Source: Thalassiosira profunda (Eukaryota > Bacillariophyta > Thalassiosirophyceae > Thalassiosirales > Thalassiosiraceae). Taken from it: a stretch of 12,291 nt of DNA. The DNA lies in the NCBI GenBank assembly GCA_036939355.1, contig JALLAP010000511.1, positions 1-12,291 on the forward strand, read 5' to 3'. Every line of letters starts with the position of its first letter. The stretch's first letter is position 1. Shown here one piece after another: positions 528 to 12,291 of the stretch. The notes below the pieces were generated by a model. That model was not told the DNA's origin. It did no database searches and saw only the letters and a program-made list of their open reading frames with translations. A program made the translations under genes and the position numbers.

Positions 528-2397
528 CTACTCGACTGAAGGGATTGTCTGCCGCTCGTACAAGAGAATGAATGCCTCCGCATCGAGAACGCTCGCCTCG
601 GTCGCCGGTGTCACGCTCGAGTCGTTGAAGAGAAACCATTTATTCTCGCTGACTTGGATGTAAACGAAATAGTGGCCGACGAAGGGACTTGATCCGCTGT
701 GTGAAACGCAAGCAACCAATCGATAGTGGCAGCCCTCGAAATCATCGTCGATGCTCCTGTCTTCTTTCATTCCAATCAGTTGCGATGCGTCGAGCTCAAT
801 AGGAAAAATCACGCGCCGGCTATCCTTGTGCAGTCCCTTTTCTTTGGACCACTGCGTTCGCCGCAGAGAAATGAGCAGGGATTGCGGTCGTCGTTGCAAC
901 GTGACCCTCCATTCGGCGTCCTTCTTTCCCTGGCATTCGTCGCAGTCGAATTGATTGTCTCCTTCGAAGCGTCCAGTCGTTTGTAAGGAATCAAAGCACT
1001 CGTGCAAATCAACGCCATTCTTCCTAGACTCCCTTTCAGAGTCACCGGTTGGAATCGACAACACAAGCCCCAACATTGGTTCCGTCCTCTTTGTCACGGT
1101 GTTGCATTCGTCGCACTCTACCTCCTGATACTGATTTACTCCAAACAGATCCAGCATCACCGAATTTGTGGCTTTGGCGGGCTTTAGCTCATCGTCCACC
1201 CTCCCAAGGTACCAGTTAAGAAATTCGTTGGCATCCTGTTGACGTTTCGCCGCAAACAGAATTGAGTGCTTCCACACTGCATTGACAAAGTATCGGGGGG
1301 CGATGGATCGCCACCGTCCGCTCCACAGCACTCGCAATAGTGCATGGGTGGCCTCCGTTAACGCCAATTCCTCTGGCGACTCGTCCTCGTGCAAAGCTTT
1401 CTTTAATCGCGTCGTGCTCTGCCGCGCAAGCGTGTAGCCGCCCTCACCGGCCAATCGCAACGGCGCCGCGGCCCGGAGGAAGTCCCGAAAGAAGCTGCGG
1501 AACCCGGAGCAGTGCGAGAGCATTTGCACGACGCTGTTCATGTAGCACGTGTTGCCCAGGTTGTCCAGCCCAGTGATTCCCGGCTCAAAGGACGAGGGTT
1601 GCGAGGCCGCTTTCGATTCCTTTTGTTCAGGCGAAAGCTTTGTTGCATCTTCCTTCATTTCGTCCACGGCCGGCAACTTTGCATCTCCCTCCTCCGGGCG
1701 CTCCACCATCTCATACTCCGCCTCCATCGATCCCTGCCGCTCCAGTTCGTCGTCGGTGGACGGCGTGGGCGACGCGACGTCCATGGCGTTGTCCCGGCGC
1801 AGTTCGATTTCGTTCAATTCCTCGCGCAGATTCGCCAGCCAGGGGGCGTCCGAGAGGACGTAGTCGTCGCACGCGTAGCAGTGGACGGCTTTGGAGACAA
1901 TGTCGATGCACACAAAGTGGCCGCCGCTAAGAGAAACGTCGTTATCGTCGCTCTCTCCGCTTTTCTCGTCGTCGGCAGAATCGCTGTCCCTCGAGATCTT
2001 CTTCCCTGAGGGATAGCTGCGCAGTATCCTCCTGAATATTTTCGCCCGCTTCTTCTTCCCATCGTCGCCGCTTTGACTGGAGGAGCTCTCCTCCGAGCCA
2101 AGAGAGTGCGTCGTGTGGAAGTGGTGTTTCGAGTGGCCGCCACCCAGGGCGGGCAGGTGGGCACGCCGGCCGCACCCAATGTGACCGCATCTGCACGCAC
2201 ATGAGAGCAAGGTGATGTCAATTGCAATTTGCAATGAATAAATACAATACGATGCACATGCTCCTGAGAACTCACCTCAGGCAGCACCAAATACCATCCG
2301 TCGAGTGGCAGCTGTCGCACGCCCACCGGAGAGGGTCGCGCAGACGGGCCCACGCCTCCTCCGTCGGCTGCTGCAGATGAGGACAGCGATCCGCCAT
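528..2397 (-). CDS. USP3-like ubiquitin-specific protease with N-terminal ZnF-UBP domain (two exons)
   Basis: A cysteine deubiquitinase, encoded as join(528..2190, 2276..2397) on the minus strand, 594 residues. Exon 1 begins at ATG 2397 (purine at -3, G at +4; in-frame TAG 30 bases upstream) and ends mid-codon; splicing forms an Arg codon. The joined N-terminus has the full ZnF-UBP pattern: CPH at 5-7, CDSC at 27-30, IWCCLRC at 36-42, GCGRR, several His, and CYACDDYV at about 145-152. An acidic, Ser-rich loop with a KKKRAK basic patch is inserted in the finger. The catalytic domain runs from about 245 to 590: Cys box GNTCYMNS with nucleophile C256, RQQDANEFL, two CDEC zinc-ribbon pairs (C400/C403 and C457/C460), His box FVGHYFVY with H547, and FNDSS with D564. 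All catalytic residues are present, so an active enzyme is expected. The finger layout, CDDYV continuation and WFxFNDSxVT motif fit USP3 and its USP44/49 relatives, which act on nuclear proteins including histone H2A/H2B; the exact substrate here is not shown. Confidence 0.9.
2191..2275 (-). other. Spliceosomal intron in the USP gene (85 nt)
   Basis: On the minus strand the donor reads CTGAG|GTGAGT and the acceptor TGCGTGCAG|ATGCGG. A possible branch site (ATTGACATC) lies about 30 nt upstream of the acceptor. The intron is 85 nt and interrupts an Arg codon after its second base. Reading through it would break the ZnF-UBP domain, whereas removal joins WCCL with RCGHIGCGR into an uninterrupted finger. 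This is the only intron that the coding evidence requires in the window. Confidence 0.88.
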
Positions 2398-2652: not shown

Positions 2653-4767
2653 TCATCGCTTCGGCACCAGGCGGGACAGCAACTCATCCTCGAGCTCTTC
2701 GACCATCTCGTGCAACCTCTGCGGTATCGTTTCCTCAATTGTGTAGCATATGTATTCAATCAGCCGGCAATAATGCGGATGGTACGGCCGGGTGTCCAAG
2801 ATTTTCCCGCTCGAATGCATCCGGTATGTGTAGATTGTGTATTGATCTTTGGCGTTGACTTTGCGTGTGTCAGGCGGTTGTTCGTTGGGATTGGGAGCGC
2901 CCGAGAGAATGCGATTTGGCACCACCTTCTCCTCGCCCAGCGACCTTTTCTGTTGTGCTTCTTCAGACCCCCCATCCTTCTTTTGAGACGACAGAGAGTG
3001 CAGTCCTGTCTCCAGCGATTGAAAGTATTGCGTCACATCGTTCGATGGCTCGACTCCTTTGAATGCGGTATCTTCCAGGAAGTTGATGTAGTGAATGAGC
3101 GTGGGGCCGTTCCCCAGTTGTTGAAATTGCGCTTCGTTCCAAGGCACAGAGGCTTTTGTAGCGAGATTGGACTCGGTGCTCGTCTCATCTTTTCCAGAGT
3201 GCAGATTGGCAATTTGCCACGTCTCCCACCCTGGGCACAGTTTGGACGCAACCACAATGACTGCAGCAACATGCAGTGGGGTGTACAGTTTGTCTGTCCT
3301 GACACCGACCAACGGAGGTGGCAAGGGATGCGTTGTGGTGGACTCCTCCTGGCTGTCACCGCCTTTGCCTTCTGCGCTCGACTCGGTCTCGCGGCGAGAC
3401 TCGACGCCCATCAATGCCAGTGCATTGTCAAGTACTCTTTGCTCAAACCCCAAATCTTGCAACAACCGAGCTGCCAAAAGTGGCACGTTATACAGGCTCC
3501 TCTGGTGGCGAGTGGCATCGCCATCCTCATTCCTGCGGAGAGATCTAGAGCCTCGCTGGGGAGTCAGACTTGCCGCGTCAGACACGCAAACATCCGGGGT
3601 TGGAATTGCCGCCACGCCGTCGCTGTACCAGTTGCACGCCGTGGCCAGCAAACCAGTCAAATCCGCAACGGATCCCGCCGGAGGCACGAAGCTCCTCGCA
3701 AAAAACCTCTTGACGAGCTCGATCCGCTCCTTCAATTTGCTCGGCAGCAAGTCGTATCCATTCAGGGCATGGGGCAATTGTCCGCTCGCCGTCCACATCG
3801 TCAGGTGGTGCGGCGCCACCCCCGTTCGCAGGTGGGTCAAGGCTAGCTGCAGTATCGAGAGGAGGAACGTCAACGATGGTTGGATCCACAACGCCGCGTG
3901 GTGAGGGTGCATCTGGTACAGCCCGTTCGGGTGGCGGTTTGCTTTGTCAAGATGTAGCTTGTGCTGACAAAGCGCGGGGATGGTCAGCACGGGGTGGCGC
4001 GCTCTTTTTCGTCGCTTCGAAGAGCGGCGGCTGGAACGGCTCGCACTGTCCGCCTCGCTGTCGTCAACGGTATCATTGGCCGAGGAATACACGCTCTCCA
4101 TTCCGACGGTGCTTTCGTCGCCTTCGCCGTCGTCTTCCCGCTCCTTCCTTTGTAAATCCTCCAATATCTCCTCTTCCACCCTCCTCCCCACTTGTATCGA
4201 CAGGTGTCCCAGGACGTAGCCCTTCCGTCGAATCTCCAAAAAGTAATCCCGAAACGACGCCCGCATCTCGGGGTATTTGGCCGAGTATTCCCTGGCCGCC
4301 TCTCTCCACGCGTTCAGGTAAGCAAACCATATCTTTTCCACAGTGCGCTCCATTCTGGTGGGTTCCTCATTCTCCTCCGGATAATGTCCGCTGTTGTGTT
4401 CCTCTATGCCAGCCAACTTGGAAACGCACTTGGCCGCCTCGCGCAACAGCCACTGGAACGCCAAGCAGCAGTCCTCCGCGTCCGGCAGCCGCTTGCTCCG
4501 GTCGTATTCCTTCAGCGGCCGCGCCGGCACCCCCCGCTTCCCGCCCCCGCCCACGGCCCGCTTCTTGACCCCGATGCCCTTCGCGGCCAGCGCGAAGCCC
4601 TCGTCGTAATCGAGCTCCTCCTGCGTGGCGATTTGGCTTTGCGTGAAGCACGACGAGCACACGAGGGCCCCCGAGGGATCGTTGTAGAAAGATGTTCCGC
4701 CACAGTTGGGGCAGGTGTCGGAGGCCTGGCGGTCGTCGTCGGGGTAGTCGTCGAGGTAGAAGGACAT
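2653..4767 (-). CDS. RNA polymerase I TFIIB-related initiation factor, Rrn7/TAF1B family
   Basis: A single 704-residue reading frame. The start ATG at 4767 is fixed by an in-frame TGA immediately upstream (4773-4771). Residues 19-40 form a zinc ribbon, CPNC and CSSC separated by 14 residues, as at the N-terminus of TFIIB-like factors. A basic linker (about 60-90) follows, in the position of the B-reader. Residues 99-200 are helical and fit a first cyclin fold. A low-complexity acidic/Ser insertion (about 210-258) ends in an NLS-like KRRKRAR at 251-257. The second conserved block (about 285-375, with LTMWTASGQLPHALNG and ADLTGLLA) and a late helix PLHVAAVIVVASKLCPGWE (497-515) are the segments I recognise as TAF1B/Rrn7-like. 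In yeast core factor or animal SL1 this subunit recruits Pol I to the rDNA promoter in the nucleolus. The C-terminal region of about 130 residues ends in an acidic helix (EMVEELEDELLSRL). A Brf1-type factor is less likely, since the cyclin repeats are very divergent. The gene is head-to-head with the Ubl-MUS81-like gene. Confidence 0.85.
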   Translation of the reverse strand: MSFYLDDYPDDDRQASDTCPNCGGTSFYNDPSGALVCSSCFTQSQIATQEELDYDEGFALAAKGIGVKKRAVGGGGKRGVPARPLKEYDRSKRLPDAEDCCLAFQWLLREAAKCVSKLAGIEEHNSGHYPEENEEPTRMERTVEKIWFAYLNAWREAAREYSAKYPEMRASFRDYFLEIRRKGYVLGHLSIQVGRRVEEEILEDLQRKEREDDGEGDESTVGMESVYSSANDTVDDSEADSASRSSRRSSKRRKRARHPVLTIPALCQHKLHLDKANRHPNGLYQMHPHHAALWIQPSLTFLLSILQLALTHLRTGVAPHHLTMWTASGQLPHALNGYDLLPSKLKERIELVKRFFARSFVPPAGSVADLTGLLATACNWYSDGVAAIPTPDVCVSDAASLTPQRGSRSLRRNEDGDATRHQRSLYNVPLLAARLLQDLGFEQRVLDNALALMGVESRRETESSAEGKGGDSQEESTTTHPLPPPLVGVRTDKLYTPLHVAAVIVVASKLCPGWETWQIANLHSGKDETSTESNLATKASVPWNEAQFQQLGNGPTLIHYINFLEDTAFKGVEPSNDVTQYFQSLETGLHSLSSQKKDGGSEEAQQKRSLGEEKVVPNRILSGAPNPNEQPPDTRKVNAKDQYTIYTYRMHSSGKILDTRPYHPHYCRLIEYICYTIEETIPQRLHEMVEELEDELLSRLVPKR

Positions 4768-5031: not shown

Positions 5032-5311
5032 ACATTCGTCTACGTAGGCGCCAAACCCTTCCTTGCGCTTGACAAGACGTACAATATTATCGTACCTAGA
5101 CAACAACCAACAACGAGCAACGCCTCCCCCTCTCCTACAACAGGGGCCCAGCCCGAGCCCGGCGGCATCCGGTCGGCTGTCCGGTGTGCGCTTGGCCCGG
5201 CTGGCGCATCTAGCGTGGCATTTTTGCCTGCGGGCCCTGGGCTGGTGCGCAAAGCGCAGTCGCGAGCGTGGCGCAGCAAAAGCATTGTACCTGCACCACC
5301 ACGCCCGAAGG

Positions 5312-8300
5312 ATGGTCCAGGTCTCCATCCTCGTCCGGCCGACGGGCGGCTACCACAAGCCCAACAAGATCGACTCCATCAGCATTGATTCCTCGGAACG
5401 GCTCGAAACGATACAGGAGAAGTACAACAGTGCGGGGCGGGGGAGCACCACTCGGCTCTATTATCGCGGTCGCGAGTTGCCTCTCAATTCATCCATTGGG
5501 AGCCACAACCTCGACGATTTTGCGATCCTAGAATGCTGCAGAAGCCCGGCACTTTCAGCAGCTCTTTCGGCGTGCCTAAAGGATTTGGACAAAGTCAAGG
5601 CACTGCCAGCGCATGAACGGACGCGGTCGAATTTGGTGTCCATTCTGCAGCTGCCTTCATCCATCGTTTCCGATGTGGAACATGAAATCTGGAACGCCAG
5701 CTCTTGGACGGACGAGAAGATCAAGCCACGGACGATCAACTTTGCCACAATCAAAGCTGTGCTGCAGCGGCTGGATCGATACCACGTTCACGATTTGCCG
5801 CAATGCAACGATTGCCAGAGCCTATTCAATGCATTGAATGCCCACAACGTGTGGAGGGGAGGAGGGCGAGATGCGAGGAATAGGAGGGGATTTAATTCGC
5901 AGGATCACCTCTTCAAGCCCGTCAAGAACAATGGGCAACCTTCCACGAACTGGAGCTTGCTCGAGGAGAAACTTGCGATTCAGCAAAGCATTAGACGCGA
6001 GTTCCAGGCCGGGTACGGCTCTTCGGGCGCAGAGGATTGGCTGGAAGAGTTCGTACGACGTGACGATGCACGGCACGGTGGGAGCAGAGGAAGAAACAAC
6101 TCGCGCCGAGCCGCCGTTGACGATGCAGATCCTTGGCTGACCCATCTGCCGCCGAATACGCCTCCAGTGCCACGGCAAAATGGAAGGAGTGCGACGCCGC
6201 CCTCGCGATCTCTGACTTCCTCCGCACGAGCATCTGGCGGCAGGCTCTACACGCCGCAATACGCCTCCGGCCCATTCTCTGTCCTCGCCACGCTTCATCT
6301 CGCGATGCATGCCCGGCACCCCCGCTCAAACGGTCGTCGTTACCTCACGCTCACCGAAGAGCAACTGAAAAGGATGGCCCAGCCAATGTGTCGATCCAAC
6401 CTCTTCGATAAAGGGCGACTGAGGGGGCGCAATGCATTCGCTTGCATGGACGGGCTTGTGGAGAAACAACTTGCGAGGAAAGAAATCGTCCGCGGCAATT
6501 CGGGCGTGGACATTGAGAAATGGGGACTGTTGCGCGGCGGCGAAGTGCTCGGGCAAGGGTGCGCCGAGTTCGACCGCGCCGTCAACCAAGTGATTCCCGT
6601 TCGGCAGCTCAGTGATGAATCGGGGAAGCCTCACGCAAATTTGACCCTCTGCCTCGACGCGCGCGAGGATGACTTGCTGCTGAAACGAATCAAGTGGAGC
6701 TGCGGTGATGAAAGCGTTCCTTTTGTCGAAAAGGAGCTGCCCGCTGGAGATTACTTGTTCCTTGAACGACGCAATGGAGACGATCACGTCCTGCCTCTAG
6801 TCATCGAGCGCAAGAGTTGGAGCGATTTAGCTGATTCCTGCCTCGGCCGAGGCAAGGCTCGTCACAGGCTGGATTGCGTCAAGATCGGTGGTGATGGGAG
6901 CGCCTGTTCCGGCTGTCAGCTGTGCAAGATGAAGCGATGTGGATGCAAGCAAATAATGTTCTTGATTGAGGGAGAGCGATGCTTGGGAAGTGATAGCGCC
7001 CACAGATCGGCGAAGAAGTGCACGGAAGACAATTGCTGCTCCGCCTGCAAACTTCTGAAAGAGAGGCACGGCGTAACACAAGATGCGTTGGAGGGTGTTC
7101 TGACGAAGCTGCAGATGGAGCACGGATGCTTTATTCATTACACCAACTCCTACAACGAGACGATTGAGTCGCTATTTGATATGAGGCAGATACTACAGAT
7201 GGACCGGGCCCTTGTACGGGACTCTCTGCCTTTCGACGCATACGCGACGCAGGCCCGAAGAGGCAGCGACGCGATGGAACGCTCACATCCAAGCCCCACG
7301 GCTGTGCAGGAGCTGAACATTGAAACAATGCTGCCGGCTGCTGTCAGCAGAACATGGAATGCCCAATTGATTGGAAGCCTGCTTGGCGTCAGCTCGTGCA
7401 GAGGATTGCCCCAACAACGTCAGCAGAGTGCGACATCTGGTCGCCGTGGAACCAGTGCCCTTCAAAACAGAGGTGCTATCGATCTAAACGATTCGGACGA
7501 TGATGCCATTTGCATCGATTTGTCGGAGTCTCAAGACTATTGCCGCCCAAAGAAGCGCAAAAAGAACGACGACACGATATGCCTCGACTCGGACTCAGAG
7601 AATGACGGAGCTCGAACTATCCGAGGTGGAGGCGGCTATTCCGACAGCTCTGACGATGAGATCGAGGTATGCAGTCAGGACGTATGGAAGACTGTTCCAA
7701 GCACCGCTGCCGGTGCTTCTTCCATTGGTAAGGGATCCGTTGGTAAGGGCAGCAGCAGCTCGAGCGACACGTCAGGAGACGAGCTCTTCAACCTCAGCAG
7801 ATTCGACCAGAGCCGCAAAAAGAGGTTCCTTGAGAGTCCAGCCAAACGTGATGGGTCCGATTCGGATGATTCTGATTCTGTATTGTTGGGATTGAGTGCA
7901 CGAAAAGGAAAGGCAAAGGTCGCGAGGAAGAAGTCTCCAGCAAAGCCACGAGCGAAGTCTTCTGCTCCTCCCGTGAGAAAATCTCCATCGCAAAAGACCC
8001 AGGACAGTGCGGCTAAGCGAGCCCCCAAAGCATCGGCTGCCACAACGGCAAATATTGAGTGCAGTCTTCTTCTTTCTTCCGACGACGAGTCTCAACCACT
8101 GCAACCACCGTCGACAAACGCATCGGCTTCTGCTCGTGCAGGCAAGAGTGAGGGCGATGATGATGATCTGTGCGAAGTCTTGGAGGTGCCCAGTCAGCTA
8201 CCGCCTTTGTCCCGCAAAAGGAAGACTGGTGCAACGAGTTCTCGTGCCACAGGGAGAATGCCCAATTTGGATGAATCGCTCCTCGTTGTCCACGGGTGGG

Positions 8301-9463
8301 GCGACTACGACAAGTCATTCCACAAACAAGTTGACGGAGTTTGGAAGGAAGTCTACTCGAACAATCCCATTGACATCTATGCGATGGCTTTGGATCGATT
8401 GGGCGAGCTTACAAGGGGAGCCGCATCTCCCCTCCTTCGGCGCAGAACGTTGATGAGACTCACACTCTGGGCACAGCTTGTCCTCGGCCTCAAAGTCAGG
8501 GTGGTGACTAGGATGCAATTCGCCGACGAGCTAAAACGGTCCATCGGTCAGGGCAGGGGGTCGGAGGCGCTACCTGCAATGTCTTCGCGACCGCCGGATA
8601 GGATGCCCCAGCGCGCAGCATTATTGTCAACGCCCCTTCCAACCAATCCGCCACCACGGGCCAGCGTCAACAGAAGCCAGCCCCTCGGCAGGAAAACGAG
8701 CTCGAAGGAAGAAGAGGCGCGGTTGGCTCGCCTTCGGAAATTCGACAACGCTGGCGGCCAATCACACGCAGCAGCCCCTGCCCCCAGCCACCCCGGGAAG
8801 TCTGGCGAGTGGGACTGTCCACGTTGCACATTCAAGAATAGCTTGGACAATACGCAATGCTCTGCGTGTGGCGTGGGCGAGTCACCCTATCTCTCTGGCC
8901 AGCGGTTGCCACAGCAGGCTCCTGCCCGCAGAGTGGATAGTGATTGGTCGTGCTCAAAATGCACGTTGGTTAACGATGGGAGCGCTAACAACTGCTCCGC
9001 GTGCGACGAACCCAAACCATTTACTGCAGCTATGCCTCGGCACTCTCGCCTCCCGGACAACTTCGACATGGATGCAGTCGACTTCCCCAATTCCTCCTCC
9101 GCGGATAGGTATTCCAAGCCACCAACGAAGCGAACTGCTCGATGCGGAGCGTGTGGGCAAGAAGGGCACAACAGAGCATCTGCCACGGCCCAAAACTGCC
9201 TGGCCTACAATGATCCGAAAGAGGTCGAGAGGAGGAAGAAGCAGCGGCAGAAGAGAGCGGAGATAATCGCCGCGGAGGAGGAGGATATGGAAGCAATCGA
9301 GAAGGAACGCGAACAGTCTGAAAGGATGCAGGCTGAGTTGAAACGTCAGATCGAAGCATTGCAGCGCAACAATGAAAAGGCCGAGGGTCGTAGGAAGGAA
9401 GAGCTGAAACGCAAGCAGCAGAAAGTGAAGCGTTTGCAGAAGCAGCAAAACAAATCTGCGTGA
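5312..9463 (+). CDS. Ubl-MUS81/ERCC4-type nuclease with SIM-like motifs, RanBP2/NZF fingers and zinc knuckle
   Basis: An intronless frame; ATG 5312 is the first ATG in it, in strong context (A at -3, G at +4), giving 1383 residues. Domains in order: a ubiquitin-like fold at 1-78 (MVQVSIL, RLYYRGREL, HNLDDFAILECC); a helical region with no assignment; a MUS81-type winged helix at about 313-395 (YASGPFSVLATLHLA, RMAQPMC); an ERCC4 nuclease at about 446-625 with D449-A-R-E452, AGD480Y, and ERK(499-501)SWSD505. All acidic residues and the Lys of the ERKxxxD site are present. Ten cysteines at 532-579 form insertions in the nuclease. Residues 640-980 are disordered with five SIM-like acidic/hydrophobic motifs and basic SPAK-type stretches. 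A possibly folded segment follows (984-1079), then RanBP2/NZF fingers at 1167-1186 and 1212-1231, a TAF1-like knuckle from C1278, and a charged coiled coil (about 1300-1380). MUS81 normally cleaves branched DNA as a heterodimer through a C-terminal (HhH)2; none is recognisable here. The nuclease call is firm; orthology to canonical MUS81 is uncertain. Confidence 0.85.
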   Translation: MVQVSILVRPTGGYHKPNKIDSISIDSSERLETIQEKYNSAGRGSTTRLYYRGRELPLNSSIGSHNLDDFAILECCRSPALSAALSACLKDLDKVKALPAHERTRSNLVSILQLPSSIVSDVEHEIWNASSWTDEKIKPRTINFATIKAVLQRLDRYHVHDLPQCNDCQSLFNALNAHNVWRGGGRDARNRRGFNSQDHLFKPVKNNGQPSTNWSLLEEKLAIQQSIRREFQAGYGSSGAEDWLEEFVRRDDARHGGSRGRNNSRRAAVDDADPWLTHLPPNTPPVPRQNGRSATPPSRSLTSSARASGGRLYTPQYASGPFSVLATLHLAMHARHPRSNGRRYLTLTEEQLKRMAQPMCRSNLFDKGRLRGRNAFACMDGLVEKQLARKEIVRGNSGVDIEKWGLLRGGEVLGQGCAEFDRAVNQVIPVRQLSDESGKPHANLTLCLDAREDDLLLKRIKWSCGDESVPFVEKELPAGDYLFLERRNGDDHVLPLVIERKSWSDLADSCLGRGKARHRLDCVKIGGDGSACSGCQLCKMKRCGCKQIMFLIEGERCLGSDSAHRSAKKCTEDNCCSACKLLKERHGVTQDALEGVLTKLQMEHGCFIHYTNSYNETIESLFDMRQILQMDRALVRDSLPFDAYATQARRGSDAMERSHPSPTAVQELNIETMLPAAVSRTWNAQLIGSLLGVSSCRGLPQQRQQSATSGRRGTSALQNRGAIDLNDSDDDAICIDLSESQDYCRPKKRKKNDDTICLDSDSENDGARTIRGGGGYSDSSDDEIEVCSQDVWKTVPSTAAGASSIGKGSVGKGSSSSSDTSGDELFNLSRFDQSRKKRFLESPAKRDGSDSDDSDSVLLGLSARKGKAKVARKKSPAKPRAKSSAPPVRKSPSQKTQDSAAKRAPKASAATTANIECSLLLSSDDESQPLQPPSTNASASARAGKSEGDDDDLCEVLEVPSQLPPLSRKRKTGATSSRATGRMPNLDESLLVVHGWGDYDKSFHKQVDGVWKEVYSNNPIDIYAMALDRLGELTRGAASPLLRRRTLMRLTLWAQLVLGLKVRVVTRMQFADELKRSIGQGRGSEALPAMSSRPPDRMPQRAALLSTPLPTNPPPRASVNRSQPLGRKTSSKEEEARLARLRKFDNAGGQSHAAAPAPSHPGKSGEWDCPRCTFKNSLDNTQCSACGVGESPYLSGQRLPQQAPARRVDSDWSCSKCTLVNDGSANNCSACDEPKPFTAAMPRHSRLPDNFDMDAVDFPNSSSADRYSKPPTKRTARCGACGQEGHNRASATAQNCLAYNDPKEVERRKKQRQKRAEIIAAEEEDMEAIEKEREQSERMQAELKRQIEALQRNNEKAEGRRKEELKRKQQKVKRLQKQQNKSA

Positions 9464-9564
9464 AGTCTCATTGGCAATTGGATTGCATGGAGGTCACTAT
9501 TTCCGTCGACGAGTTGGAGTGCCTTGTATGTTTTATCTGCGGTATCGGCCATTCCAGCTCTATC

Positions 9565-11124
9565 TCAAAAAGACCAAATGCTCTCTGGGGTTGGTCGCTC
9601 ATACTCTATCAAGTCATCCTCACTTTCAACGTCGTGTGCATTTGTTGTTGCGTCATTCATGTGATGAGGGTAGTCGTAATAGTGCTGATGATGTTGCTCT
9701 TGCATTGGCTCATACGTCTCTTCATATTGGTGATGTTCATGATACAACTCTCCACCAGTCTCCTCCCCGACGTACTCTTTCAGTCGATAGGACATGCGCG
9801 GTTGCCGGAGTTTGCGCAAACCTTTGGCTTCGAGCCCACGCACGATATCGCTGGAAACGCCGATGTCCTCGGCAGTTTCTCGGATACTCTTGGGTCTTCC
9901 GTCGTCCAGCCCAAATCTATGCGTCAAGACCAATCGTTCATCGTGGCCGAGAGCGTCTAACATCGAATGCACTTCGCCTCGGAGTGACTCCGACATGAAA
10001 TCTTCGTCGGGCGTTGCCATTTCTGTGCTGGCTAAGCAATCAGCCAACGTGCGCTTGTCCTCCGTGTTTGCGTGTCTATCCACCGGCAGTTCTAGGCTCA
10101 GAACGTTCTTCGACAAATGCCGGTACAGGTGGATTTTGTCTAACGGAACGCCCATTTCATGTGCCAACTCTGGCTCGCTTGGTTGTCTTCCATTCTGGCG
10201 TTCCAACTCCTTCCGCTTTTTGTGCATCGTTCGCATCATGGCTTGGACATGGGCTGGAAGTCTGATCATTCGGGAGCTCTCGGCAATCCCCCGCACTATT
10301 CGCTGCCTTATCCAATGGGTGGCGTAGGTACTAAATCGATTGCCCCTCTCCGGATCGAACCGTTCTGCGGCTTCCATGATGCCCATGTATCCTGTTTGAA
10401 TAAGATCGTCGAGTTGCAGCGTTGCGTCGGTGCCACCTGCTCCACCAGCCGAAGAGAGTCCTATACCACCACTATTGAGCATGTTGTAATATCGCTTGGC
10501 GATCATGGTCACTAGGCCAACGTTTCCCTGAATCAGTTTTGTTTTTGCTTCTTCGCCTCTTGCCATTACATTGCGCAGTTGGTCGACGGTCAATGAGCAG
10601 GCTGATGCCCACTGGTACTCTGATGGCTCGCTGTGCTGATCTCTGGCCATCCACTCAACCAAGTTGTCTCGTGCCCGAGTGACGGATCGAAGGTGTTGAA
10701 CGGCTAGAGCAATCTCCTTTTCCTCGTCAAAAGTCAGTAGATGTGAGGATGTTGGATTTGCATCTTGCGATATTGTGTTCTTTCTTCGAAATGGAATGCG
10801 TCGCCGCAGCTGCGCGACCTCTTCAACTTCTTCCAACGGTGGGCTCGAGTATGGAGGTTGGTGCATGGTCGGTGATGCGTCTTGCTCTTCAATGTGGTCC
10901 GCGCCGTTCGTGGGATCGTAGGTGAACGGATGCCCCTCCCAGAAGCCATACGTCATGGGATGCCCCGGATCGTCCAAGTAGTTGTTTGCCATGCTTCCCC
11001 GAGGTCTCTGCGGAAACGATGGCGTTGCTTGCAGAGCGTCGGCGCATGCATTGTTACAGCGAGCAGCAACAAGCACGAACGCAGCAGCCGCAGCCACCGT
11101 CGTCTTTGCACTCAACCAAGTCAT
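9565..11124 (-). CDS. Nucleus-encoded plastid sigma-70 factor (primary-type)
   Basis: 519 residues. Start 11124 is preferred because it gives a compact signal peptide: hydrophobic core at residues 8-21, AxA-type cleavage at ADA-LQ (28-32), then a Pro/Arg/Ser-rich stretch resembling a transit peptide. This fits bipartite targeting to a complex plastid. ATG 11166, 14 codons upstream, is an alternative in poorer context. Sigma regions: 1.2 from about 130; 2.1 at 192-214; a Gly/Ser-rich insertion at 216-236; 2.2-2.4 at 238-293 with LDDLIQTGYMGIMEAAERFD, NRFSTYATHWIRQRI and IRLPAHV; region 3 at about 290-365; region 4 at about 373-442 with a helix-turn-helix ending in LEAKGLRKLR. Such factors direct the plastid-encoded RNA polymerase to -10/-35 promoters. 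The tail, 443-519, is rich in His, Tyr, Glu and Asp and has no counterpart in bacterial sigma-70. The gene is convergent with the Ubl-MUS81-like gene, with 101 bp between stops. The plastid location is inferred from the leader; mitochondrial use is less likely. Confidence 0.9.
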   Translation of the reverse strand: MTWLSAKTTVAAAAAFVLVAARCNNACADALQATPSFPQRPRGSMANNYLDDPGHPMTYGFWEGHPFTYDPTNGADHIEEQDASPTMHQPPYSSPPLEEVEEVAQLRRRIPFRRKNTISQDANPTSSHLLTFDEEKEIALAVQHLRSVTRARDNLVEWMARDQHSEPSEYQWASACSLTVDQLRNVMARGEEAKTKLIQGNVGLVTMIAKRYYNMLNSGGIGLSSAGGAGGTDATLQLDDLIQTGYMGIMEAAERFDPERGNRFSTYATHWIRQRIVRGIAESSRMIRLPAHVQAMMRTMHKKRKELERQNGRQPSEPELAHEMGVPLDKIHLYRHLSKNVLSLELPVDRHANTEDKRTLADCLASTEMATPDEDFMSESLRGEVHSMLDALGHDERLVLTHRFGLDDGRPKSIRETAEDIGVSSDIVRGLEAKGLRKLRQPRMSYRLKEYVGEETGGELYHEHHQYEETYEPMQEQHHQHYYDYPHHMNDATTNAHDVESEDDLIEYERPTPESIWSF

Positions 11125-11674
11125 CTTGTCTATTGTAGGGCGCGCGTTCGCCGAAGGTTCACACATCGCACCCAAGTTGAGTTGCTTGCAACAGAACCAC
11201 TCTAACTTTGAAGCAGCGCCGGATAGCCCTGTCCCATTCCCTGCCTCGGACAAGTATCTCCGCCGATCAAGCGCGGTGGCGATGAGAGAACAGTGAGGGC
11301 AGCGGCCGGGTCTACAAGCGCCGTTCTAGAGAGAGAGAAGTGCGAAGCGCCTCGTTTTGAGGGGCGGGGAGCGCGAGGAACAAAAGGGGAAACGTATCAA
11401 CGGAGGAATAGTCAGTTCAGCTACGGGCGTCAACCCTCTCCCAAGCAAGCGTACAAAGTGGTTCCCCCAGCCAAGACGACAATAGTATTGATGCTAGAGC
11501 AACCACGCATACATTTGCATTCAGCTTGCTTCGTTGACCGGTCTATTAATTCGTGTCATCAATTCCGCCAACTGTCCCTTGGGTCAATGTCTCAACTAAT
11601 GCTAAGGAAGCAATAGGAGCCGAAGTTTTCCACAGTTGTATCTGCCCCTCCCACGCTCTCTGTACACGCATTCA
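11125..11674. promoter_or_regulatory. Intergenic region: sigma-factor upstream region and PPR 3' end
   Basis: 550 bp between the sigma-factor start and the PPR stop, both on the minus strand. It must contain the sigma promoter and 5' UTR plus the PPR 3' UTR. The only sequence features seen are a short GA-rich run (about 11328-11339) and the upstream in-frame ATG at 11166 that could extend the sigma factor. Small open frames here have no recognisable protein features. I searched by eye for tRNA A/B boxes and saw none that fold convincingly. Confidence 0.45.
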
Positions 11675-12291
11675 TCATCGGCGGAACTGCCATCGTCTCA
11701 TTCGCTTCCCCTCGATCACATTGCACGTCCACTCACTCGGCAGGTCCCTCAAATCGACCTCTCCCCACATCGAGCTCCCCACCAGACTTTCGTACGTCTC
11801 TTCCATTCCCATCTCCCGCAGTTGTCGCAGCACCATTTCGCCCACCATGCCTTCCTTGGCACATTTCCTAAAAACCGTCTCGACCAAGTGGTCCCGAGCG
11901 TGGCCCTCGGGCATTTGATTGTTGATCACCTTCAGATAAGTGCCGTAGGTGACCTGGTCGGGCCTCCCGTGCGGACTCCGATGCAGGCCCTTCAGCATGG
12001 CGTTGGCTATTTCTATCGCCTCAGACTGCTCTTCCAAATCTCCAATGGAAAAGGCGCACGCGTTCAAGACCGAGTTGTACACAACATTGTTGGGTCGGAG
12101 CGAGGTTTTGCCGGATGTGTCGTACAGCTCCTTCATGTGAACGAACAATTCGTAGGCGCGTTGGGCCTTGCCAAAGCTCTGCGATCGAGCGTACGCGTTA
12201 ATTGCCGTCGCAAAGCTCGTCGCGTCGGGCGACACATCCAGCTCGCTGTTGCTGTCCAGCTCCTCCATCCGTTGGATGACATCTCCCGCCT
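11675..12291 (-). CDS. Pentatricopeptide repeat (PPR) protein, C-terminal part (5' end outside window)
   Basis: The frame is open from the right edge to TGA at 11677-11675, giving 204 visible residues; the ATG at 12268 is internal because a PPR helix (DVIQRMEELD) already begins before it. Three or so degenerate PPR units are visible: one around VSPDATSFATAINAYARS, one around LRPNNVVYNSVLNACAFS, and one around GRPDQVTYGTYLKVINN, spaced by 35 to 50 residues. Each has the Pro-Asp/Asn-x-x-(S/V/T)-(F/Y) turn between helix pairs. A non-PPR C-terminal domain ends in a basic tail (KRMRRWQFRR). PPR proteins bind organellar RNA and act in processing, stability or translation. This wording pattern is common among diatom PPR proteins. 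No catalytic C-terminal domain (DYW, E or SMR) is visible. The target RNA and organelle cannot be determined because the N-terminus is missing. Confidence 0.85.
   Translation of the reverse strand, partial: AGDVIQRMEELDSNSELDVSPDATSFATAINAYARSQSFGKAQRAYELFVHMKELYDTSGKTSLRPNNVVYNSVLNACAFSIGDLEEQSEAIEIANAMLKGLHRSPHGRPDQVTYGTYLKVINNQMPEGHARDHLVETVFRKCAKEGMVGEMVLRQLREMGMEETYESLVGSSMWGEVDLRDLPSEWTCNVIEGKRMRRWQFRR

What the first reader, a model, noticed from the sequence alone, without database searches (positions are those of the whole stretch)
5312..9463. Single polypeptide joining a ubiquitin-like domain, MUS81-type nuclease, SIM-like cluster, NZF fingers and a zinc knuckle
The sequence shows, in one uninterrupted frame, an N-terminal Ubl, a MUS81-like winged helix plus an ERCC4 nuclease with an intact DxRE/GDY/ERKxxxD site, then SIM-like motifs, two RanBP2/NZF fingers, a TAF1-like knuckle and a coiled coil. 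Animal, fungal and plant MUS81 are simpler (HhH, winged helix, nuclease, HhH2), with SUMO/ubiquitin reading supplied in trans by scaffolds such as SLX4. A plausible inference is a nuclease with its own ubiquitin/SUMO-reading scaffold, recruited to modified chromatin or stalled forks. I do not know of a described protein with this order, but could not search.
Basis: partly seen in the sequence, partly recalled or inferred. Interest (0 to 1): 0.75.

Follow-up and report, generated by a model that had tools for sequence, protein, structure and literature searches.

The report
Diatom MUS81 with built-in SUMO/ubiquitin modules
Diatoms carry an unusually large version of the DNA-junction-cutting enzyme MUS81 in which parts that look able to read SUMO and ubiquitin damage signals, normally found on a separate scaffold protein, are built into the same chain.

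Summary
Window 5312-9463 (+) is one 1383-aa ORF from a Thalassiosira-type diatom; it matches T. profunda ACHAXT_006357 at 100% over residues 300-660. It is not a chimera: the order recurs in relatives from centric and pennate diatoms, in transcriptome-derived proteins, and in a collinear second copy under purifying selection (dN/dS 0.14).

No HhH2 was recognised.

Best reading: the diatom MUS81 catalytic subunit with in-cis SUMO/ubiquitin modules. Binding and cleavage are inferred, not assayed. A 2015 survey reported MUS81 not found in T. pseudonana and Eme1 not found in any diatom examined. New variant of a known kind.

The parts
5312..9463 (+). Whole coding sequence, 1383 aa plus stop, one ORF. 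NCBI's T. profunda model P0002 lacks residues 900-944 (45 codons); a GT-AG pair fits there, so this may be an in-frame intron. Either form keeps the frame.
   Evidence: dN/dS 0.142 against the C1183 copy
5312..5545 (+). N-terminal SUMO/Rad60-like Ubl (residues 1-78), no C-terminal GG
5546..6085 (+). Conserved helical domain (residues 79-258), fold not identified
   Evidence: mostly pLDDT above 90, with dips; profile A8 finds one PDB sequence, E 0.73
6248..6622 (+). MUS81-type winged helix (residues 313-437)
   Evidence: MUS81-like_WH in 6 of 36, best 5.4e-5; 2mc3 colinear at E 0.15; region aligned in 69 of 69
6632..7261 (+). ERCC4/MUS81-type nuclease (residues 441-650): DxRE 449-452, GDY 479-481, ERKxxxD 499-505
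6875..7048 (+). Cys-rich insertion inside the nuclease (C522, C532, C535, C538, C545, C557, C570, C576, C579; H586, H604, C606 follow it), probably zinc-binding
   Evidence: C522, C535, C557, C570, C576, C579 and H586 identical in 69 of 69; the other five in 64-68 of 69; zinc binding is inferred
7262..8263 (+). Linker of low conservation (residues 651-984), disordered by inference, with SIM-like motifs
   Evidence: conservation; 219 SIM-like motifs in 69 members vs shuffle mean 28, max 45 of 500
7496..7534 (+). SIM-like motif DDDAICIDLSESQ
7565..7603 (+). SIM-like motif NDDTICLDSDSEN
8279..8560 (+). Ordered domain (residues 990-1083), possibly the second half of an ERCC4 fold without an active site
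8726..8743 (+). ARLxRF-type motif, function unknown
   Evidence: regex in 69 of 69
8810..8869 (+). NZF 1 (residues 1167-1186), absent from the C1183 copy
   Evidence: Pfam
8945..9004 (+). NZF 2 (residues 1212-1231)
   Evidence: Pfam; at least one NZF in 61 of 69 by regex
9143..9199 (+). TAF1-type zinc knuckle CGACGQEGHNR..C
   Evidence: zf-CCHC_6 in 8 of 36; regex 59 of 69
9215..9457 (+). Long charged C-terminal helix/coiled coil (residues 1302-1382)
   Evidence: H333-413 of the C-terminal model

Best explanation
The gene encodes the diatom form of MUS81, the catalytic subunit of the branched-DNA endonuclease, enlarged with signal-reading modules. Shown by sequence and model: MUS81-type winged helix, MUS81-type ERCC4 nuclease with all catalytic residues, SUMO-like N-terminal domain, SIM-like motifs, NZFs, knuckle and coiled coil, conserved together in diatoms. 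Inferred: it nicks forks, flaps and recombination intermediates. SIMs and NZFs concentrate it on SUMO- or ubiquitin-marked chromatin, the work that SLX4's SIMs and UBZ fingers do in trans in animals. The SUMO-like domain either recruits the SUMO/STUbL machinery or docks onto the protein's own SIMs and restrains it until SUMO chains compete. Relatives with a RING could also ubiquitylate SUMO-marked targets. The partner may be the second MUS81-type nuclease of the genome (contig C25), or may be partly replaced in cis by the half-ERCC4-like domain.
Confidence: 0.66

Rival explanations
1. It is a diatom-specific paralogue in the MUS81/XPF superfamily, not the MUS81 orthologue. The MUS81 role falls to the C25 family (nuclease, apparent HhH by eye, SIM-like motif, RING/PHD-like finger), and this protein is a separate damage-processing nuclease.
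For: The C25-family profile (22 sequences) matches MUS81 chains in the PDB by sequence (E 6.8e-6), whereas the window family's profile A2 shows only archaeal XPF (E 0.016) and no MUS81 among the 60 of 61 rows printed. Three C25-family members, P0104, P0107 and P0109, are listed as a crossover junction endonuclease (name cut off in the list).
Against: Pfam calls no WH in C25-family members scanned, though it also misses it in the window protein; the window family has one in 6 of 36, and its fold ranks MUS81 chains clearly first. Both families have the ERK active site.
Confidence: 0.22
2. It is a MUS81, but the extra parts are not SUMO/ubiquitin readers: the NZFs bind RNA, Ran or other proteins, the SIM-like motifs are acidic phospho-sites, and the Ubl is structural.
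For: RanBP2-type fingers have several ligands; the best sequence matches of the fingers include RanBP2 and Nup153. Ala at position 25 in both window NZFs; 55 of 157 NZFs fit the recalled full motif. The SIM shuffle control breaks up acidic runs, which favours enrichment.
Against: Co-occurrence of a SUMO-like domain, SIM-like motifs and, in some relatives, a RING; Thr at position 13 in at least 141 of 157 NZFs.
Confidence: 0.25
3. The frame is two genes, or an assembly chimera.
For: The linker 651-984 is poorly conserved and NCBI's model leaves 45 codons of it out. One relative, the S. marinoi model P0083, lacks the ERCC4 call and the ERK motif.
Against: Collinear independent contig C1183; T. 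profunda model on a 3.4-Mb contig; full-length relatives and transcriptome-derived proteins with all parts; purifying selection on both sides and in the linker.
Confidence: 0.03

Closest known systems
MUS81 catalytic subunit (MUS81-EME1/EME2)
   Same: Winged helix plus ERCC4 nuclease, DxRE/GDY/ERKxxxD site, best fold match
   Different: Adds Ubl, helical domain, Cys-rich insertion, SIM-rich linker, possible half-ERCC4 domain, NZFs, knuckle, coiled coil; no HhH2 recognised
SLX4 scaffold (UBZ4 fingers and SIMs recruiting MUS81, XPF and SLX1)
   Same: Ubiquitin-type zinc fingers and SIM-like motifs linked to a structure-specific nuclease
   Different: Here in cis with the nuclease; NZF not UBZ4; Pfam found no BTB, SAP or SLX4 C-terminal domain
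Rad60/NIP45 SUMO-like domains
   Same: Non-conjugated SUMO-like domain in a genome-stability protein (Rad60-SLD match in 5 of 36 members)
   Different: One N-terminal copy fused to a nuclease
SUMO-targeted ubiquitin ligases (RNF4, Slx5-Slx8)
   Same: SIM-like motifs plus RING in 14 of 69 members
   Different: The window protein has no RING; the RING is attached to a nuclease

Membership tests
MUS81 | ERCC4 nuclease fold closest to MUS81 | tested here: met
MUS81 | Active-site residues D/E, GD, ERKxxxD | tested here: met
   69 of 69
MUS81 | MUS81-type winged helix before the nuclease | tested here: met
   PF21136 in 6 of 36 members, best 5.4e-5, below Pfam's cut-off of 27 bits where scores were shown; not called in the window protein itself
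MUS81 | C-terminal HhH2 after the nuclease | tested here: inconclusive
   No HhH family among those printed for 36 members (first 25 of 45 shown); low confidence after residue 650. Pfam also misses the apparent HhH of the C25 family, so sensitivity is poor
MUS81 | N-terminal HhH (HHH_8) | tested here: inconclusive
   Helical domain 79-258 present but unassigned; PF14716 in the own genome only E 0.35, on contig C460
MUS81 | Partner EME1/EME2 | tested here: inconclusive
   PF21292 no match in this genome, no eukaryotic control; C25 nuclease is a candidate; Patil 2015 lists Eme1 as not found in the diatoms surveyed
XPF/ERCC4 | N-terminal SF2 helicase-like domain plus nuclease | tested here: inconclusive
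   No helicase match in the window protein, but the scan of the genome's own XPF piece on C221 shows none either, so the test is insensitive; fold ranks XPF below MUS81
SLX4 | BTB, SAP and conserved C-terminal domain | tested here: not met
   None in the Pfam scan of the window protein up to E 1
STUbL | SIMs plus RING | tested here: not met
   No RING in the window protein; RING in 14 of 69 members
Rad60-type SUMO-like domain | SUMO fold without a conjugation GG | tested here: met
Ubiquitin-binding NZF | Thr-Phe with a hydrophobic residue at position 25 (recalled) | tested here: inconclusive
   TF then Ala, and TL then Ala, in the window; 55 of 157 NZFs in 93 proteins fit

The most novel reading that the evidence does not exclude
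Diatoms have collapsed a SUMO/ubiquitin-gated repair nuclease complex into single chains. One chain carries a catalytic MUS81, a degenerate half-ERCC4 'partner' domain, a SUMO-mimic lock on its own SIMs, ubiquitin-reading NZFs and, in some lineages, a RING that makes it a nuclease-bearing SUMO-targeted ubiquitin ligase. A sister chain in the same genome fuses an SLX1-type GIY-YIG nuclease to another MUS81-type nuclease.
Probability: 0.2. Interest if true: 0.8.

Novelty: new variant of a known kind. Interest (0 to 1): 0.58.

Why it matters
MUS81 is usually taken as a compact enzyme told where to cut by separate scaffolds and modifiers. A phylum of major primary producers seems to have put the signal-reading parts into the enzyme, which makes the SUMO/ubiquitin control of junction cutting testable in one polypeptide. 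It also offers a candidate for the MUS81 that a 2015 survey did not find in T. pseudonana, and raises the question of what replaces EME1 in diatoms.

Tried and rejected
Two-gene or chimera reading: rejected. XPF identity: set aside on fold ranking and on a separate XPF gene.

Searches that gave little: profile A1 found one new relative, P0095 (only 7989 candidates scored); profile A2 in the PDB was swamped by NZF matches; profile A8 of the helical domain gave one PDB sequence at E 0.73. PF21136 in the own genome gave no match and no control genome rang; PF21292 gave none and rang in 1 of 14 controls, below the cut-off; the controls are prokaryotes, so absence is not shown. Alignment A4 was misaligned at its start and not used for modelling. 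No known fold was listed for residues 79-258, which the tool says were barely tested.

Rows dropped: of the 93 proteins held (window protein plus 92 hits), the 70 of 1180 aa or more were aligned and 23 shorter ones, P0083 among them, left out; P0002 was then left out as near-identical to the window, leaving 69, window protein included. P0095 came later and is not in that set. A1 holds 36 of the proteins, chosen by me. NZF and RING regex counts over all sizes use 93 proteins: P0001, P0003-P0093 and P0095. One search stopped on a missing row and was redone.

Paper searches behind 'not in print' (a library of open PMC papers only): diatom + MUS81; MUS81 + ubiquitin-like domain; MUS81 + RanBP2-type zinc finger; MUS81 + stramenopiles + structure-specific endonuclease; three of SLX1/MUS81/fusion protein/diatom; MUS81 + SUMO-interacting motif + RING + nuclease; ERCC4 domain + diatom. 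Only listings were read, except passages of PMC4647503, PMC7841394 and PMC8599992.
Full report
What is there. The window is contig C510 of a 21.8-Mb assembly. ORF 5312-9463 (+) gives 1383 aa. The closest database protein is T. profunda ACHAXT_006357: 100% over residues 300-660, 97% overall, its model lacking 45 codons that a possible in-frame GT-AG intron would remove. A second contig, C1183, is collinear with window 5128-12291: 90.0%, 92.6% and 92.6% nucleotide identity in three pieces and 74.3% in a fourth. It carries the same frame. Between the two copies dS is 0.324, dN 0.046 and dN/dS 0.142; each of the eleven segments tested is below 0.3, the linker included. The NZF segment is the most divergent (dN 0.22, 29 gapped codons): the copy lacks the first NZF. 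Whether the copy is an allele, a homeologue or a sister strain was not resolved.

Family. A search with residues 300-660 gave 92 proteins at E <= 1e-3, and a profile search added one. The 14 whose source names an organism or a taxon id are all diatoms: Thalassiosira, Skeletonema, Conticribra, Cyclotella, Chaetoceros, Seminavis, Cylindrotheca and a Bacillariaceae sp. (two checked, the rest from general knowledge). Among 69 full-length members, window protein included: eight catalytic positions identical in 69; WH region in 69; ordered C-domain in 69; Ubl region in 65; an NZF by regex in 61; strict knuckle in 59; RING in 14; Ubl, NZF and strict knuckle together in 48. Transcriptome-derived proteins P0005, P0021 and P0050 contain Ubl start, active site, NZF and knuckle in one chain; P0064 starts after the Ubl. 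P0083 lacks the ERK motif and the ERCC4 call.

SIMs, NZFs, RING. SIM-like motifs: 219 in 69 members, shuffle mean 28, sd 5.2, max 45; members with at least one 69, shuffle maximum 36. The shuffles do not keep acidic runs, and the members are related, so this is support and not a probability. NZFs: 157 in 93 proteins, 55 fit the recalled Thr-hydrophobic-hydrophobic ubiquitin motif; the window's two have Ala at the last place. A RING (for example P0062, zf-RING_2 1.4e-9) is found by regex in 14 of 69 full-length members and 19 of 93 of all sizes. It lies between the C-domain and the NZFs in 13 of the 14; in the other, P0076, the regex finds no NZF.

Other nucleases of the genome. C221 is XPF. 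C25 encodes a second MUS81-type nuclease with SIM-like motifs and a RING/PHD-like finger (Pfam matches below their cut-offs), no WH called; its family profile matches MUS81 in the PDB at E 6.8e-6. C79 encodes a GIY-YIG domain and a MUS81-type nuclease in one 971-aa frame. Patil et al. 2015 (PMC4647503, passages) report MUS81 not found in T. pseudonana and Mms4/Eme1 not found in the diatoms surveyed; I could not tell which gene they scored as MUS81 elsewhere.

Mechanism. Shown: the anatomy and its conservation. Inferred from known families: branched-DNA cleavage; targeting by SIMs and NZFs as SLX4 does through SIMs and UBZ4 (PMC8599992, passages); a SUMO-like domain that recruits SUMO machinery or masks the SIMs. 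None of this was assayed. Overall: a real, conserved and, within the searches named, undescribed arrangement of a known enzyme.

Noticed in passing
G000:C79:34094-37533 (L010, L012, L014); T. profunda P0110: A GIY-YIG domain (2e-12 in P0110), SLX1-like by eye, and a MUS81-type ERCC4 nuclease share one 971-aa open frame, with the end of the nuclease on further exons: an apparent natural SLX1-MUS81-type fusion. P0110 is the only one of 65 relatives listed with GIY-YIG.
   Followed up: partly
G000:C25:129246-129689 (L004), P0094/P0096: Second MUS81-type nuclease family with N-terminal SIM-like motif and RING/PHD-like finger (13 of 65 by regex); candidate partner of the window protein. Its T. oceanica member THAOC_30748 (P0103) is listed in a Skeletonema dohrnii proteomics table (PMC7841394, passage).
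   Followed up: partly
G000:C945:7248-7673 (L013): Another GIY-YIG domain, 67% identical to that of P0110, in an 833-aa stop-free frame that runs on into what looks by eye like a methyltransferase-type sequence; may be adjacent genes.
   Followed up: no
G000:C1183:3000-10802 (L009): Collinear second copy of window 5128-12291 at about 90-93% nt identity (74% in one piece), with dS 0.32 in the nuclease gene: very divergent haplotype, homeologue or sister strain; its copy lacks the first NZF.
   Followed up: partly
window 528-2234 (-): Ubiquitin-specific protease (UCH 3.2e-49, weak zf-UBP) in the same neighbourhood as the ubiquitin-linked nuclease; linkage not tested in other diatoms.
   Followed up: no
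window 2653-4767 (-) and 9565-11253 (-): Rrn7/TAF1B-like Pol I factor (below cut-offs) and a sigma-70 factor, presumably plastid-targeted.
   Followed up: no
P0001 residues 1139-1144, window 8726-8743: ARLxRF-type motif found by regex in 69 of 69 members; a similar ARLKRF occurs in the C25 nuclease protein P0094. Function unknown.
   Followed up: no
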